From Candidatus Hepatoplasma crinochetorum (GTDB lineage Bacteria > Bacillota_I > Bacilli_A > Mycoplasmatales > Hepatoplasmataceae): DNA of 64,000 nucleotides. The notes under the pieces are model-generated. The model saw only the letters and a program-made list of their open reading frames with translations. It did no database searches and had not been told where the DNA came from. The number at the start of each line of letters is the position of its first letter. Position 1 is the stretch's first letter. Shown in pieces: positions 8,977-53,631 of the stretch. Location of the stretch: contig CWGI01000001.1 in the NCBI GenBank assembly GCA_001179805.1, positions 1-64,000 on the forward strand, written 5' to 3'. The translations under genes and the position numbers were made by a program.

Positions 8977-9089
8977 TTTAAAAAATAAATATTAAATTAA
9001 CATTTTTAAAATATTTTAATATATTAAAAATGTTAAAATTAATTTTATATAATTATTTTATTTAATTAAGGAGCGATTCATATTTTAAG

Positions 9090-9866
9090 ATGGAAAATGA
9101 GAATAAAGAGATTGAATTTTTTTCTTGAATTAGAAAGATTGAATTTTTAAAATTAAAAAAATATTATCAAAAATATTATCAAAAAAATGGAGGCAATAGA
9201 GAATTATTTTTTATAAATAAATATTTAACAGAGAAAAAATTAAATAATTTTGATCAAAAAAATTTTAATTTATGAATAAACAAATTTAAAAAAGAAAATA
9301 ATTTTGAAATTAAAGAAAATGAGGAATTAAAAAAAATTAACGATCCAGATCAAATTATTTTACATAAAATTTATTATTTATTTGAAGATATAAAAAATTA
9401 TATGTTATTGCTAAATGAGAAAAATTATAATAAATTTTATATATATAAATTAATATATTTTATTTTAGGATTTTCAATAAATACAAATAAAAAATATGAG
9501 TTATGAAGTAATGAAGAAGAGATATTAAAATCTTTTATTATTAATAAAAGTAAAAAGACAAAACTAAATTGATATGCATTTGAAAATGGACCTATTTTAG
9601 GAAATATTTTTATTACAAACGAAGATGATTTTCTTTTTTATTTCAAAGTAGATGATGAAAGAAAACTAGTTATATTTGAAATGGCCTATTTTCTTTTAAA
9701 AAATTTTCCTACAATTAGATTAACTGAAGAAAGCTATAAAACTGATCCTTGATTAAAAAATTATGAAAGTAGTGGAAGTCAATTGTATTTTAAAATTAAG
9801 AATGAAGATATAATTAATTATTTTAAAAACAATAAACCTTTTTTCTTAAAATTATTAGAAGATTAA
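9090..9866 (+). CDS. Panacea/DUF4065-like protein, candidate antitoxin
   Basis: 258 aa. The N-terminal half (1-115) is lysine/asparagine-rich with no recognised fold. The C-terminal half resembles the Panacea (DUF4065, SocA-like) domain: IYKLIYFILGFSI aligns with the family's KLLYFAQG-type helix, then WYAFENGPILGNIF with the W..GPV core, and LTEESYKTDPWLKNY with the conserved T...PW segment, before a final IINYFKNN helix. Panacea domains are known as the antitoxin half of many toxin-antitoxin pairs and in phage proteins. The next gene starts 5 nt after this stop and is a small membrane protein, the arrangement of such pairs. RBS AAGGAG lies 15 nt before the ATG, somewhat far. Assignment rests on motif reading only. 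Confidence 0.55.
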
Positions 9867-9871
9867 AAATT

Positions 9872-10342
9872 ATGAATAATAATAAAATAAAAAGAAATAA
9901 ACAACATGAAATTATAAGATTGAAAAGACTTGAGCATAGAAAATTAATAAGAGAAAAATTTAAAAAATATTTTCTTTGAAGATTATGGTGACAATTTATT
10001 ATAGTTTGAATAATAATTTTAATTTTATTGCTTACAATTTTTAAACCTAGCGAAACACAAGATTGAGCTGTATTCATTGAATTTTTGTTTGCTTCAATAA
10101 TTTCATTGATTGCAATTTATTTTACTTTAATAATAGATAGACAAACATCAAAAAGTCTTGATGAAATTGATATTTTAATTAAAAATACAAAGAAAATAAT
10201 AGAAGAAGAAAAAACACAAAAAATTAAGACTGATAAATTTAAATATAATGAAAAATATTTAAATTTTGTGAATCAAGATTTTTATGATAAAAATATTGAT
10301 TTAAAGAAAAAATATGAAAATAAAATTATAAATAAAAAATAA
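9872..10342 (+). CDS. Small two-TM protein, candidate toxin partner
   Basis: 156 aa. A very basic N-terminus (1-40) is followed by a Trp-rich hydrophobic segment (FIIVWIIILILLLTIF, about 48-63) and a second one (FIEFLFASIISLIAIYFTLI, about 68-88). A charged, probably coiled-coil cytoplasmic tail (90-156) follows. It starts 5 nt after the Panacea-like gene, so the two are co-transcribed. Several toxins paired with Panacea antitoxins are known to be membrane proteins, which makes a membrane-acting toxin a reasonable inference. It could equally be an unrelated membrane protein. No enzymatic motif is visible. Confidence 0.5.
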
Positions 10343-10441
10343 GCAGAAATTAATTAAAAAAATTGTTGATTATTTTTTTAAACTTTATAATAGTGATTAT
10401 ATAATTGGAATAGTAAATTCAAAAAAATACAAAATTCATTA
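10343..10441 (+). pseudogene. 3' relic of an SDR gene
   Basis: The frame reads KKIVDYFFKLYNSDYIIGIV then NSKKYKIH and stop, matching the C-terminus of the SDR at 7722 (EKIIAYFFELYESDYIIGIV, ending FKIH). Nucleotide identity is obvious over about 80 bp and includes the stop and the TTAATT after it. No start or upstream part remains. The relic shows that a second SDR copy once ended here. Confidence 0.75.
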
Positions 10442-10547
10442 ATTAATTAAAAAATATATTACATTTTTTAATTAATTAATGATGTTTTAAAGTAGATTTT
10501 TTATAAATTGTTTTAATTTTAAATATCTTATAATAATTTTTAATTAA

Positions 10548-12104
10548 TTATTGTAAAATCTCTTCTAATATTCTTTTTTCTAATTCTTGAAGTTCTTTTT
10601 TTAATTCAATTTCTTTTTGTTCTGCTTCAAAAATATCTCTTTTAATTTCCTCTATTGGTCTATAAGTTTCTTCTTCAAAGTTATCAATATATCTAGATAT
10701 ATTTAAATTAAAATCATTTTTCTTAATTTCATTTATATTTACATTTCTTGAATATTTTTCGATTTCTTTTTTGTTTTTATATGTATCAACAATTTTTAAA
10801 ATATCTTGATCTCTTAATTTATTTTTATTTTTTACCTTTTCGAATTCTTTTGATGCATCAATAAATAAAATACTTTTATTGTTTTCTCTACATTTTTTAA
10901 ATACTGCAATTATTGCTGGTATTCCTGCTCCAAAAAATAAATTTGATGGTAAACTAATTATTGCATCAAATCAATTATAATTTTCAATTATTTGTCTTCT
11001 TATTTTTTCTTCCGCTCCCCCTCTAAATAAAATACCATGCGGTAATACAGTTGCCATTATACCATCTTCACTTAAGTGATAAAGCATATGTTGTATAAAA
11101 GCAAATTCAGCCCGAGAAGTTGGCGCTAGTGCATCAAATATTGCAAAGCGATCATCTATTTGATAATCTTTTTCTTTTGGATCTCATTTTGTTCCAAATG
11201 GAGGATTTGCAACAATAATATCAAATTTTTTATTTTGCTTAAATTTATCATTTTTTAAAGTATCTCCTTGTTTTATTTTAAATTTTCCGTAATTAAAACC
11301 ATGTAAAATCATATTCATTCTTGCTAGATTATATGTAGTATGATTTAACTCTTGTCCTTGAATAATTGTGGGTATTTCTTTTTTTAAATTATTGCTTTCA
11401 TTTTTTACGATATTTTTAATTTCATTATATGCACGAATTAATAATGAACCAGAACCACAAGTAGGATCATATATTACATTTGCTTCTTTTGCTTTTTTTG
11501 AAGTAGCTACTATTTTAGCAATTGTTTTGCCTACTTCAATTGGAGTATAAAATTCTCCTCCTTTTTTCCCTGCATCACTTGCAAATTTAGAAATTAAATA
11601 TTCATAAGAATCCCCTAAGAAATCATTATTTTCTCTACTAATCTCAAAATATTCTAATTCAAGCATAATTTTTGCAATTAGTTGATTTATTTCTAATTGT
11701 GTATCCCCTAATTTTTTATCATTTAAATCTAATTCATCAAAAAGTCCGGAAAAATCATCTCGACTTTTTTCAGAAGTAGAATTTTCAATTTCCTTAAATG
11801 TATCTGATAATAGAATATTTAAATTATCAATATTTTTTTTATTTTTAATATTTTCAATTATTTTTGAATAAAAATGATTAGGATTAATAAAATAGCCTAA
11901 TTGATCTATTACATCTTCTTTTACTTCTTGATCTAAATCAGCTAAGCTAAATTCTTCTTCTCTATAATAATTTTCTAAATTTGTGGAAATATATTTAAAA
12001 AATATAAAACCAAGAATATATTTTTTAAATTCATTTGCATCCATTCTTCCTCTTAATTTATTGGCTATATTTCATAATTTTGCATTTAATTCTTCTTTTT
12101 TCAT
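10548..12104 (-). CDS. hsdM: Type I restriction-modification, DNA methyltransferase subunit
   Basis: 518 aa, the normal length for HsdM. It transfers methyl from SAM to adenine in the site chosen by HsdS. The N-terminal helical domain begins ELNAKLWNIANKLRGRMDAN, typical of the family. The SAM motif is DPTCGSGSLLIRAY (about 211-224), the catalytic motif NPPFGTK (about 300) and EFYTP lies ahead of motif I. The ATG at 12104 is chosen because AGGAG lies 5 nt upstream and because it restores the conserved N-terminus; a later Met at 12044 would cut it. It is the last gene of an hsdS-hsdR-hsdM operon, 13 bp after the hsdR stop. UGA(Trp) occurs at the WDPKEKDY segment. Confidence 0.95.
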
Positions 12105-12117
12105 TTTGCTCCTAAAA

Positions 12118-14958
12118 TTATATTTGTGTTCAATTAAAAATATCAATTAATTTTTCACTTATCTTTTTTTGTTTTTTAATTCTTTCTTTTCCTCGTAATG
12201 GTAAAATTGCTTTTCTTAATTCTCTTATATTAATATTTTCATTAATTTGATATTGATCAGCGACATTATAAATATGTTGTTCATTAAGATTTTCTTCTGA
12301 AATTAATTTTTTAATCATTTCAGATCTTTTATTTTCTAAATTATTTAATAAATTATTAATTGTAATATTTATGATTTCGTTTTTATTGATAATATCTTCA
12401 ATTGTTTTATTTATAAAATCAGTTATCAAATCAATTAATTTTTGTGAATAATTTGATTTTTTAATATCCTCTGTTAATTTTTCTAAATTTTTAATATAAT
12501 GATTTTTATCTTTATAATTTTGATTTATTTCTTTTAAACATTTTTCAATATATAATGAATCTATTTTTTCATATCCCAATAATTCTATTTTAAAATTAAT
12601 TTCACTTAACCCACTTATTTTTTCTTTATCTTCTCTTTGTTCTTTATAAAAAGTGGAATAAGTATTTTTAAGTTCTTCAAATGGTTGTTTTTCAATATTT
12701 AAATCATCATTTTTAAAAACTGTGAAACTTTGTAACATATTAAAATTTGTTATTATTTCTTTAAATAATTCAATAAATTCAATTTTATCAGAAGGGTTTT
12801 TAAAAGATAAAATTTGATCATAATTTTGGTATTTTTTATTTAATTGATTAATTAAATTATTAAAGTCTTTTAAATAAGCCTCATAACTTTTTTTCAATAC
12901 TCTTGTATCTGCATTTGTATCAGCAAATAATTTGATTGCTTCTTCTACATTTTTTCTAATTGGTCTAAAAGAAATTATTTGTCCTGTATCTTTTAAATCA
13001 TCATAAATTCTATTTGCTCTTGAAAAAGTTTGAATTAAAGTATGATATTGTAAATTTTTATCTACATATACTGTATTTAAAAGTTGAGAATCAAAACCTG
13101 TTGTAAGCATATTTACAACAATTACAATATCAATATTCTTATTATTTCTAAAATTATTAAGTAATTTTTTTCGATATACATCATATCAATGCTCATTTTT
13201 AAGATCAATTTTATTTTCTGTGTTTACATTAAAATTTTTTACTATTTCTTTAAGAAAATTTTCTTTATTTAAATTAGAATTAATTCTTTCTTCTTTATCT
13301 AATGAAAATATTGCACTAACTTTTATTTTTTTATCTTTTGATAATTTTTGATTTATTTTTGAAAAAAAATCATAATAAATTTTAAGCATATTAATACTAG
13401 ATGTTACTAGTAAAGCATTAAAATTTTTTTTATGTGTTTTTTTATTATGCATCTCAAATATTTTTTCTACAATTAATTTAATTCTAGTTTGATTATTTCA
13501 AATTTCTTCTTTATTTAAATCTTTATCTTCAATAATTTTTTCAGATTCTTCTAATTCTAATTGACCCTTTTTTTGATCAAATGTTTTAAAATATTCAACA
13601 GAAAATCCAAGAACATTTTTATCATTTATTGCATTATAAATTGTATAATGGTGCAATTCTTTTCCAAATACTTCTTCTGTTGTTCGATTATTTATATTGT
13701 TAATTTTAAAAATTGGTGTTCCTGTAAATCCAAATATTTGAAGATTATTAAAATAATTAGATATATTTGCACTAATTTCACCAGATTGACTACGATGAGC
13801 TTCATCAAAAACCATTACGACTTTTTCATTTTTCAAAGAATTATTTTTTACAATATAACTATCTTCTTTTAATAATTTATTTAATTTTTGAATCGTTGTA
13901 ATAATTATTTCTCTTTTATCATTAAATAATTCTTTTTGTAAATCATTGGTTGTTAATACGGATTTAATTTCTCCTTTTATTCTTGCAAAATCATTAAATT
14001 GACTAGTAGTTTGAGAATCTAAATCTTTTCGATCAACAACAAAAAGAATTTTTTTAATATCTAAAATTTCATCTCTAATAAGTTGTACAGTTTTAAAAGA
14101 AGTTAAAGTTTTACCTGAACCTGTTGTATGTCAAATATATCCACCATGTAAATTATTTTTACTCTTGTTAGAATTAATTTTAATTTTTTCTAAAATTTTT
14201 TTTATAGCATAGAATTGATATGGTCTTAAAATTTTTATTTCTTCACTTTCTTTTTGAATTACCATATATTTAAAGATCATATTAGATAAGTGACAAGGAT
14301 TTAAAAAAGCATTACAAAAAGATTCTTTTTTATTTATATTTTTTAATAAAAAATTTATAGATTTATTATCTTGATCTGTTCAATTAAAGGAAAATTTATA
14401 ATTATTTTCTTTATGGTCTTCATTTTTATTATTTGTTGCAAAATATTTAGTTTCAGAACCATTTGAAATGATAAAAATTTGAATAAATTTAAACATTTCA
14501 TTAAAATTCATTTTGTATCTATGACACTGTTTGAAAGCTTCTTCTAAATTAATTCCTTTTTTCTTAAGTTCTATTTGAACAAGAGGAAAACCATTAATAA
14601 ATAAAGTTACATCATATCTTTGTATTTTATTGCTATTAATTTTTATTTGATTTGCGACTTGGAAGTAATTTTTACAAAATTTATTATCAAAAAATCTAAT
14701 GATATTACCATTATCTAGTGTAAAATTTGTTTCTTCCCTTAAAATAATTGCTCTTTTAAAAATATCACCACGATTTAAATAATTGTAAATTTTATTAAAA
14801 TCTTGTTCTTTTAATTTAATATTATTAAATTTTTCAATTTGTTTTTTTAGATTTAATTTTAGATCATTATTATTTTTTATTTTTATGTATTGATAACCTA
14901 AATTTATTAATTTTTCTATTAAATTATTTTCTAATACTGATTCGTATTCTATTTTCAT
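12118..14958 (-). CDS. hsdR: Type I restriction endonuclease subunit R
   Basis: 946 aa, read through several UGA(Trp) codons. HsdR translocates DNA and cuts at a distance from the HsdS site. The N-terminal nuclease domain carries the D...ExK motif (YDVTLFINGFPLVQIELKK, about 128-146). The SF2 motor follows, with Walker A HTTGSGKT (about 280), DEAH box VFDEAHRSQSG (about 378-388), GFTGTP (about 405) and the later LTTGFD and QTFSRANR motifs. A long helical C-terminus (about 700-946) serves complex assembly. No frameshift is visible, so the subunit looks intact. The start follows a short gap from hsdS (80 bp). Confidence 0.95.
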
Positions 14959-45269: not shown

Positions 45270-45275
45270 TATAAC
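45270..45275 (+). promoter_or_regulatory. Possible -10 (TATAAC) of the tracrRNA-like gene
   Basis: TATAAC lies about 20 bp before the first anti-repeat. The -35 is not convincing. The predicted start near 45282 gives an RNA of about 190 nt. Confidence 0.3.
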
Positions 45276-45281
45276 AAAAGT

Positions 45282-45472
45282 GAATTACTTGGTAGTTTTA
45301 AACAATTTATGAATACCAATCAAATCAACTCAAAATTTAAATAACTCATGAATACCAACTAATCAAGATAATGGTTTAGAAGTAACTAGATTGCTTCGAA
45401 TATCTAAGGGTACTCAGGTAACCCTCTTAACAAATCCTGAAAAGAGTCATTTTAGTAAAATGACTCTTTTTT
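45282..45472 (+). ncRNA. tracrRNA-like RNA with two tandem anti-repeats
   Basis: Two copies related to the CRISPR repeat at 53464 lie in tandem: a weak one at 45295-45329 and a strong one at 45334-45369 (about 29 of 36 positions match). Read on the plus strand, the second is anti-sense to the crRNA repeat: its AACUAAUCAAGAU end pairs over 13 bp, with two wobbles, with the repeat's GUUUUGAUUAGUU. After it come a hairpin (GAAGUAA with UUGCUUC, 45379-45397) inside an outer UUAGA/UCUAA stem, a second hairpin (GGGUAC with GUAACCC, 45408-45424) and a strong terminator. This order, anti-repeat, nexus-like hairpins, terminator, is that of type II tracrRNA. No cas gene adjoins it. The 5' end is a guess. 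Confidence 0.7.
45440..45472 (+). terminator. Terminator of the tracrRNA-like gene
   Basis: AAAAGAGTCATTTT (45440-45453), 3-nt loop, AAAATGACTCTTTT (45457-45470), then TT. A perfect 14-bp stem. Confidence 0.9.
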
Positions 45473-45479
45473 ATTTTAT

Positions 45480-45715
45480 TTGATTTAATAAATAATTTTT
45501 ATATTTTTTATAATTATCAAATTTAATTTCATTTAATTTAAAAAATAATTGATCTCTTAATTTTTCATTTTCAATTTTAAAATTAAAGGGACCTAAATAT
45601 TTATTTTCAGTAAAATCTAAATCTAATAAGATATAAGATAATCTATTTTTAATAAAATCATCAGTTATTTCTTTATAATCGTTTTTTTTGTTATTTAAAT
45701 ATCAGTGCTATAATT
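45480..45715 (-). pseudogene. Start-less 3' remnant of an unknown gene
   Basis: The minus strand is open for about 78 codons with no start, reading NNKKNDYKEITDDFIKNRL, then SYILLDLDFTENKYLGPFNF and a lysine-rich end (NYKKYKNYLLNQIK). Codon use and composition look like real coding sequence, so this is probably the tail of a lost gene. I cannot identify it. Its place beside the tracrRNA-like gene makes a cas origin conceivable, but nothing in the residues shows that. Confidence 0.4.
45709..45714 (+). promoter_or_regulatory. Extended -10 promoter (TGCTATAAT)
   Basis: TATAAT preceded by TGC, 45 bp before the ATG of the 20-codon ORF. Matches the extended -10 form also seen at 56667. Confidence 0.55.
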
Positions 45716-45758
45716 TTATTGAAAAAGCTTATTTAAGACTTTTTTAAAGGGGAAAATT

Positions 45759-45821
45759 ATGAACACTTTAAAACCAAAATACACAAAATCAGGTGGAGAA
45801 TTATTAAGTTGATTTAAATAA
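45759..45821 (+). CDS. 20-aa peptide or truncated gene start
   Basis: ATG with an excellent Shine-Dalgarno (AAAGGGG, 7 nt spacing) and a strong extended -10 promoter. It reads MNTLKPKYTKSGGELLSWFK and stops. Either an expressed microprotein or leader peptide, or the intact 5' end of a gene whose body was lost when treC or the neighbouring CRISPR parts were rearranged. Convergent with treC. Confidence 0.4.
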
Positions 45822-53259: not shown

Positions 53260-53466
53260 TTATCCTTCTAATTTTCCTAATCTTGTAATATTTACAAGTT
53301 TTAAATCTTGTGCTTTTGTGATTCCTATTCTAGGCCATTCTCCTATTATATTTTTATATTTATGATCACCTTGTTGTTTTAAATTTGCATTTCCTGTTGA
53401 TATTAATTTTCTTAAACCATCTAATCATCGATAAGTATAAATAATTTCACTATTAAATGAAATGGG
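53260..53466 (-). pseudogene. Start-less remnant resembling the Cas9 C-terminus
   Basis: Open for 68 codons on the minus strand without a start, from the edge of the terminal CRISPR repeat to TAA at 53260. It reads IYTYRWLDGLRKLISTGN, then GDHKYKNIIGEWPRIGITKA and DLKLVNITRLGKLEG. The pattern RIG(I/V)-x-KA ... LKK-x-x(I/V)-x-x-LG-K/N-(I/L) near the stop is how many type II Cas9 proteins end (PAM-interacting domain). Direct contact with a CRISPR array supports a cas9 3' remnant left after deletion. It uses UGG and UGA for Trp. Another origin is possible; residues alone do not prove Cas9. Confidence 0.45.
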
Positions 53467-53631
53467 TTAAAAAACTCATAAATACCAGTTAATCAAAACG
53501 TCACCATAATCTTCAAAGAAAATATTTTTGGGTTAAACAACTCATGAATACCAACTAATCAAAACAATTTAATATGAAAACATTTGGTGTTATTAGGGTT
53601 AAACAACTCATGAATACCAACTAATCAAAAC
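53464..53631 (-). CRISPR. Mini CRISPR array: three 36-nt repeats, two 30-nt spacers
   Basis: Repeats at 53464-53499 (degenerate, about five mismatches), 53530-53565 and 53596-53631 (identical). Spacers at 53500-53529 and 53566-53595 are exactly 30 nt and unrelated to each other. On the minus strand the repeat begins GTTTTGATTAGTTGG and ends GTTGTTTAACCC, a type II form. The degenerate copy is the leader-distal end if transcribed leftward, with the A/T-rich leader near 53632-53700. No cas genes adjoin except the remnant at 53260. The anti-repeat partner is at 45334. Confidence 0.88.

What the first reader, a model, noticed from the sequence alone, without database searches (positions are those of the whole stretch)
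45282..45472. tracrRNA-like gene 8 kb from the array, beside no cas gene
Two tandem anti-repeats, then small hairpins and a perfect terminator. The second anti-repeat end pairs over 13 bp with the first 13 nt of the array's repeat, with two wobbles, and stays complementary further on. Type II tracrRNAs are normally next to cas9. Here the RNA sits between a metal ATPase and treC, suggesting that a locus was broken by rearrangement. A tandem double anti-repeat is itself unusual.
Basis: partly seen in the sequence, partly recalled or inferred. Interest (0 to 1): 0.85.

Follow-up and report, generated by a model that had tools for sequence, protein, structure and literature searches.

The report
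Orphan tracrRNA from lost CRISPR system
This is the guide-RNA partner gene of a CRISPR-Cas9 system whose protein genes were deleted in this woodlouse gut symbiont; the two spacers left behind both match the bacterium's own chromosome, and the RNA has an unusual doubled binding site that most of its relatives with intact systems share.

Summary
Window 45280-45472 holds a type II tracrRNA gene with two tandem anti-repeats, a hairpin, a nexus and a terminator; the second anti-repeat pairs over 33 bp with the array repeat 8 kb away.

The assembly's size and contig number match "Ca. Hepatoplasma crinochetorum" Ps, published as lacking CRISPR-Cas. The tracrRNA was not moved away from cas9. In the congeners Av and scabrum the orthologous tracrRNA sits at the same place, tail to tail with csn2-cas2-cas1, about 10 kb from cas9 and the array. 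In Ps both protein blocks were deleted, leaving a csn2 3' end (45474-45728), a cas9 C-terminus (53266-53454), three repeats and the tracrRNA. No cas gene is found elsewhere.

Both remaining spacers match Ps's own chromosome (30/30 at 9963-9992; 29/30 at 427009), against 1 of 99 in two relatives. Autoimmunity is the likeliest reason for the loss, but the order of events is unproven.

The tandem anti-repeat is conserved in six Hepatoplasmataceae of two genera, follows each genome's own repeat where tested, and was not seen as a full pair in other mollicute families. In Ps the -10 box and one conserved motif look damaged, so the RNA is probably a decaying fossil.

The parts
45270..45275 (+). -10 box TATAAC of the tracrRNA promoter (TATAAT in Av, scabrum, vulgare, Tyloplasma, SnakePit MAG)
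   Evidence: sequence comparison
45280..45294 (+). 5' leader of the RNA, complementary to the 3' end of anti-repeat 2
   Evidence: duplex test: -6.7 kcal/mol, shuffle p 0.03; similar in the 5 relatives
45295..45330 (+). anti-repeat 1 (AR1)
   Evidence: 25/36 to array repeat; -32.3 kcal/mol with the repeat
45334..45369 (+). anti-repeat 2 (AR2), the canonical anti-repeat
   Evidence: 30/36; 33 contiguous bp with the repeat, -46.1 kcal/mol
45379..45397 (+). hairpin after the anti-repeat; sequence differs between species, stem kept
   Evidence: folds
45407..45425 (+). nexus AGGGTACTCAGGTAACCCT
   Evidence: pattern AGGGTACNCAGGTAACCCT matches only Hepatoplasmataceae among 320 genomes of the order
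45433..45439 (+). AATCCTG, a 3-nt shortened form of AATCYYCCTG found in all five relatives
45440..45472 (+). intrinsic terminator
   Evidence: perfect stem
45474..45728 (-). csn2 3' remnant (85 codons, one in-frame stop)
   Evidence: tblastn with scabrum Csn2, 56% identity, E 4e-21
53266..53454 (-). cas9 C-terminal remnant (63 codons, frame open)
   Evidence: tblastn with scabrum Cas9, 71% identity, E 1e-20
53464..53499 (-). CRISPR repeat 1 (degenerate, trailer end; crRNA strand is minus)
53500..53529 (-). spacer 1; matches own chromosome 9963-9992 at 30/30
53530..53565 (-). CRISPR repeat 2
53566..53595 (-). spacer 2; matches own chromosome C1:427009-427038 at 29/30 (outside the window)
53596..53631 (-). 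CRISPR repeat 3 (leader end)
9963..9992 (+). self-protospacer of spacer 1, inside ORF 9836-10339 next to hsdM/hsdR

Best explanation
45280-45472 is the tracrRNA gene of a type II CRISPR-Cas9 system that was taken apart in this strain. Shown by sequence: in related Hepatoplasma the system is split over two sites (tracrRNA plus csn2-cas2-cas1 between the P-type ATPase gene and treC; cas9 plus array between glpO and an RCC1-repeat gene); in Ps the protein genes at both sites were deleted, and the tracrRNA, three repeats and gene stumps remain. Shown: both remaining spacers match the strain's own chromosome. Inferred, about 0.5: self-targeting made Cas9 harmful and its deletion was the escape. In the intact relatives AR2 is the anti-repeat that forms the guide duplex with crRNA and carries the nexus that Cas9 binds. 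AR1 is inferred to capture further pre-crRNA repeats on the same transcript, because its pairing with the local repeat is kept while the repeat changes (about 0.45). In Ps the RNA has no partner protein and is most likely a decaying fossil.
For: Anti-repeat, nexus and terminator. Orthologous tracrRNAs at the same place in Av and scabrum next to cas1, identified by TIGR03639. No Cas9 by TIGR01865 in Ps, against E below 1e-100 in all three congeners. tblastn with Cas9, Cas1 and Csn2 finds only the stumps, and Cas2 nothing credible; both sites lie inside one 614-kb contig. Self-matches with 0 and 1 mismatches, against a best of 4 or more in 120 shuffles; relatives 1 of 99. Decay in Ps: TATAAT to TATAAC, the shortened AATCYYCCTG motif, the stop in csn2.
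Against: The structural parts of the RNA and the 33-bp AR2 pairing are intact in Ps, so the loss is recent or some constraint remains. The PAM of this Cas9 is unknown, so the self-targets may not be cleavable. Scabrum carries one perfect self-match (in a gene that looks like lysyl-tRNA synthetase) while its cas9 is intact. No transcript data.
Confidence: 0.78

Rival explanations
1. Cas9 and the adaptation genes were lost or inactivated first, by drift in a shrinking genome, and the self-matching spacers were taken up or tolerated because interference was already dead.
For: Degraded systems are frequent in mollicutes (PMC6882279). From general knowledge, spacers from the host genome are not removed when interference is off. 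Only two spacers remain.
Against: Spacer uptake needs cas1 and cas2, which are gone as well; two separate deletions at sites 8 kb apart look more like selected loss, though this is not decisive.
Confidence: 0.35
2. The tracrRNA is still functional and works with a Cas9 encoded elsewhere (missing sequence, plasmid or co-resident strain).
For: Structural parts of the RNA and the pairing are intact. The assembly is a draft of two contigs, about 96% complete.
Against: The syntenic sites of all cas genes are closed and carry stumps; no Cas9 by HMM or tblastn.
Confidence: 0.07
3. The RNA has been taken over for another task, for example antisense control or RNase III titration.
For: Stems preserved although the proteins are gone.
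Against: Damage at the -10 box and at the conserved AATCYYCCTG motif; no target indicated; array and stumps are decaying alongside.
Confidence: 0.08
4. About AR1 only, compatible with the fossil reading: the tandem anti-repeat is a passive duplication or array fragment with no role.
For: AR1 is weaker than AR2 and has lost its lower-stem end in Ps and scabrum. The palindromic core of the repeat makes some AR1-AR2 pairing automatic.
Against: Kept in six genomes of two genera at a start-to-start spacing of 37-50 nt, with no spacer-sized unit between them; AR1 pairs with its own species' repeat (-41 and -44 kcal/mol in vulgare and Tyloplasma) far better than with the other Hepatoplasmataceae repeats (-15 to -29).
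Confidence: 0.4

Closest known systems
Type II tracrRNAs of mollicutes (PMC6882279), including that predicted for Ca. H. crinochetorum Av
   Same: Anti-repeat, hairpins/nexus and intrinsic terminator; long hybrid with the repeat without a bulge, as reported for Av
   Different: Two tandem anti-repeats, not mentioned in the passages of that paper I read; in Ps no cas protein genes remain
Split CRISPR-Cas locus of Ca. H. crinochetorum Av (PMC3942034) and the Hepatoplasmataceae systems of PMC10928387
   Same: Same two sites, same gene order, same repeat family
   Different: Protein genes deleted in Ps, which was reported to have no CRISPR-Cas system (PMC4536667); tracrRNA not mentioned in PMC3942034 or PMC10928387 (0 occurrences)
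S. pyogenes tracr-L (long tracrRNA acting as a natural single guide on the cas promoter; PMC11417352)
   Same: A longer tracrRNA whose 5' part can fold back on the anti-repeat (predicted here)
   Different: Almost no room for a guide upstream of the fold-back segment; the upstream element is a direct copy of the anti-repeat
Orphan CRISPR arrays and self-targeting spacers (PMC6990116)
   Same: cas-less array whose spacers match the host genome
   Different: Here the tracrRNA also survives, 8 kb from the array

Membership tests
Type II tracrRNA | Anti-repeat complementary to the repeat of the system's array | tested here: met
   33 bp contiguous, -46.1 kcal/mol
Type II tracrRNA | Nexus hairpin and downstream intrinsic terminator | tested here: met
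   nexus conserved
Type II tracrRNA | Encoded near cas genes (usual, not essential) | tested here: not met
   Only stumps in Ps; next to csn2-cas2-cas1 in Av and scabrum
Type II tracrRNA | Transcribed, processed by RNase III with crRNA, bound by Cas9 | not testable with these tools
   no expression data
[quoted passage not shown]
   (the PF18541 search rang in no control genome and is uninformative)
[quoted passage not shown]
[quoted passage not shown]
   3 repeats, 2 spacers; leader-side sequence similar to scabrum by eye
tracr-L type natural single guide | 5' part carries a guide for the cas promoter plus a repeat mimic pairing with the anti-repeat | tested here: inconclusive
   Fold-back pairing predicted in all six, but the predicted start leaves no guide-length segment

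The most novel reading that the evidence does not exclude
Hepatoplasmataceae use a distinct tracrRNA architecture: a leader that folds onto the lower stem of the main anti-repeat, plus a second, upstream anti-repeat that binds another pre-crRNA repeat, so that one transcript serves two repeats or keeps Cas9 loading in check until crRNA is present.
Probability: 0.4. Interest if true: 0.7.

Novelty: new variant of a known kind. Interest (0 to 1): 0.52.

Why it matters
It corrects the published statement that strain Ps has no CRISPR system: it has a recent wreck of one, with tracrRNA, array and gene stumps at two separate sites, and with both spacers matching the host, a clear candidate for CRISPR loss through autoimmunity. 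More generally, a doubled anti-repeat kept across at least two genera raises a testable question about how tracrRNA captures pre-crRNA. I found no description of it in the papers searched.

Tried and rejected
Rfam scan of the window: no family reaches its threshold. PF18541 in the genome: no match, but none in the controls either, so uninformative. Rearrangement in Ps: rejected by synteny. Plain array fragment: the anti-repeats start 39 nt apart against a 66-nt repeat period, with no spacer between. Viral origin of the spacers: no exact match in IMG/VR. Shared spacers with Av or scabrum: none. The nexus pattern in four viral contigs, Siphonobacter and a Dehalococcoidia MAG was taken as chance and not followed up. 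A MAFFT alignment of the 3' halves was unusable because the Tyloplasma and SnakePit coordinates I gave were off; pairings were compared species by species instead. A blastn of the deletion junctions gave no hits. A gapped scan for anti-repeats timed out and was replaced by an ungapped one. The first survey of cas9 loci had too little flanking sequence and was repeated with 20-kb stretches. A PAM could not be inferred: three self-match flanks share only A at +1 and T at +3.

Full report
Identity of the genome. The window lies in a 621,166-base, two-contig genome read with UGA as Trp. Size and contig number equal the published draft of 'Ca. Hepatoplasma crinochetorum' Ps from Porcellio scaber (PMC4536667), which states that CRISPR-Cas is absent and a type I restriction system present. 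Among the same-genus genomes, lengths identify G002 as strain Av (657,101 bp, PMC3942034), G003 as Ca. H. scabrum Ps-JP (606,194 bp) and G001 as Ca. H. vulgare Av-JP; G006 matches Ca. Tyloplasma litorale (615,622 bp). Record titles confirm scabrum and vulgare, and show that G008 is a MAG named F_SnakePit_MAG_00002.

Observation. Two direct copies of the array repeat (AR1 45295-45330, AR2 45334-45369) are followed by a hairpin, a nexus and a perfect terminator. AR2 forms 33 contiguous bp with the crRNA-sense repeat.

Relatives. The tracrRNA has orthologs in Av (305295-305458) and scabrum (277660-277799) at E about 1e-28. There it lies between the same P-type ATPase gene and treC, tail to tail with two reverse-strand genes: a csn2-type ATPase gene, then cas1 (TIGR03639, E 4e-81 and 1e-79); a cas2-like reading frame lies between them. 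My searches give the csn2 product only weak P-loop matches; its identification as Csn2 is from PMC10928387 (HHpred). cas9 and arrays of 36 and 65 repeats lie about 10-15 kb on, between glpO and the RCC1-repeat gene. This split was described for Av in 2014 (PMC3942034).

What happened in Ps. The flanking genes are collinear, but csn2-cas2-cas1 and cas9 are missing. tblastn with the relatives' proteins finds only stumps: 85 codons of csn2 with one stop (45474-45728), 63 open codons of cas9 (53266-53454), and a 22-residue match upstream of the cas1 start (45755-45820) that overlaps a small forward ORF. Cas2 gives nothing credible, and the Cas9 HMM finds nothing in the genome, while all three congeners score below 1e-100. 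The cas9 stump differs from scabrum by 0.22, 0.08 and 0.29 at codon positions 1, 2 and 3, which suggests it evolved under constraint until recently; the csn2 stump, at 0.32, 0.18 and 0.33, shows this less clearly. Ps has TATAAC where the five relatives with a double anti-repeat have TATAAT, and AATCCTG where they have AATCYYCCTG. I read these as early decay; they are two small differences and not proof.

Self-targeting. Spacer 1 matches its own chromosome at 9963-9992 (30/30), inside an ORF next to hsdM and hsdR. Spacer 2 matches C1:427009-427038 (29/30, mismatch at the PAM-distal end), at the start of a glycosyltransferase gene. The best of 120 shuffled spacers had 4 mismatches. The 35 Av spacers gave no self-match with 4 or fewer mismatches; of 64 scabrum spacers one was perfect. 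Each control genome had a 40-kb stretch reading N, and Av a further 1.1 kb not fetched, so the controls cover about 93%. Two of two against one of 99 is a strong contrast on small numbers. It fits loss of Cas9 through autoimmunity but also permits self-spacers gained after interference had failed, and the PAM is unknown.

The double anti-repeat. It occurs in Ps, Av, scabrum and vulgare (genus g1) and in Tyloplasma and the SnakePit MAG (genus g4); copies start 37-39 nt apart in g1 and 50 nt apart in Tyloplasma. G007, a third genus of the family, has a single anti-repeat. For comparison I took 20 cas9 loci from other families of the order: three gave no array and two no anti-repeat candidate; in the other fifteen I saw no tandem full-length pair outside the array's own neighbourhood, although one (L159) has a partial ~15-nt upstream copy. 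That scan was ungapped with a 22/36 threshold, so weaker copies could be missed. AR1 follows its own genome's repeat: -41.2 (vulgare) and -43.7 (Tyloplasma) kcal/mol against -15 to -29 with the other Hepatoplasmataceae repeats tested; in Ps, Av and scabrum, which share one repeat type, -32. The SnakePit repeat was not recovered, so its AR1 was not tested this way.

The leader. In all six, the segment between the -10 box and AR1 can pair with the 3' end of AR2 and the junction (-6.7 to -8.4 kcal/mol; shuffle p 0.013 to 0.049 each), but not in G007. Two pairs differ by compensating changes (Av AUUAUCU/AGAUAAU, vulgare ACUAUCU/AGAUAGU; Tyloplasma UUUA/UAAA). The segments were chosen after seeing the sequences and three of the species are close relatives, so this is suggestive only. 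Minimum-energy folds of the four Hepatoplasma RNAs show this fold-back; those of Tyloplasma and the SnakePit MAG do not.

Verdict. The feature is a tracrRNA and its link to the array is solid. The claim of a rearranged locus is replaced by deletion of the cas genes from an already split system. The double anti-repeat is a conserved variant whose function is open.

Noticed in passing
window 45759-45821 (+): Possible 20-aa ORF MNTLKPKYTKSGGELLSWFK with a ribosome-binding-site-like AAAGGGG and an upstream TATAAT; scabrum has MSNLKPRYTKTGGELLSWFK upstream of treC (L098). Overlaps the region matched as upstream of cas1.
   Followed up: partly
window 9066-14958: ORF hit by spacer 1 (9836-10339, membrane-protein-like) lies next to hsdM and hsdR; no hsdM/hsdR homolog was found in the covered parts of Av and scabrum. 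Suggests an island that came in beside the self-target.
   Followed up: partly
L159 (G107) about 13500: A tracrRNA of another family in the order with a partial (~15-nt) upstream copy of its anti-repeat.
   Followed up: no
G006:C1:457836-474417 (L079, L097): Tyloplasma array of about 250 repeats in a 616-kb genome.
   Followed up: no
G001:C1:72467-77020 (L076): Several degenerate repeat copies outside the main array of Ca. H. vulgare.
   Followed up: no
G003:C1:21169 and array 295379 (L167, L075): Scabrum spacer of 32 nt perfectly matching its own chromosome, in an ORF resembling lysyl-tRNA synthetase (by eye), although its cas9 is intact.
   Followed up: partly
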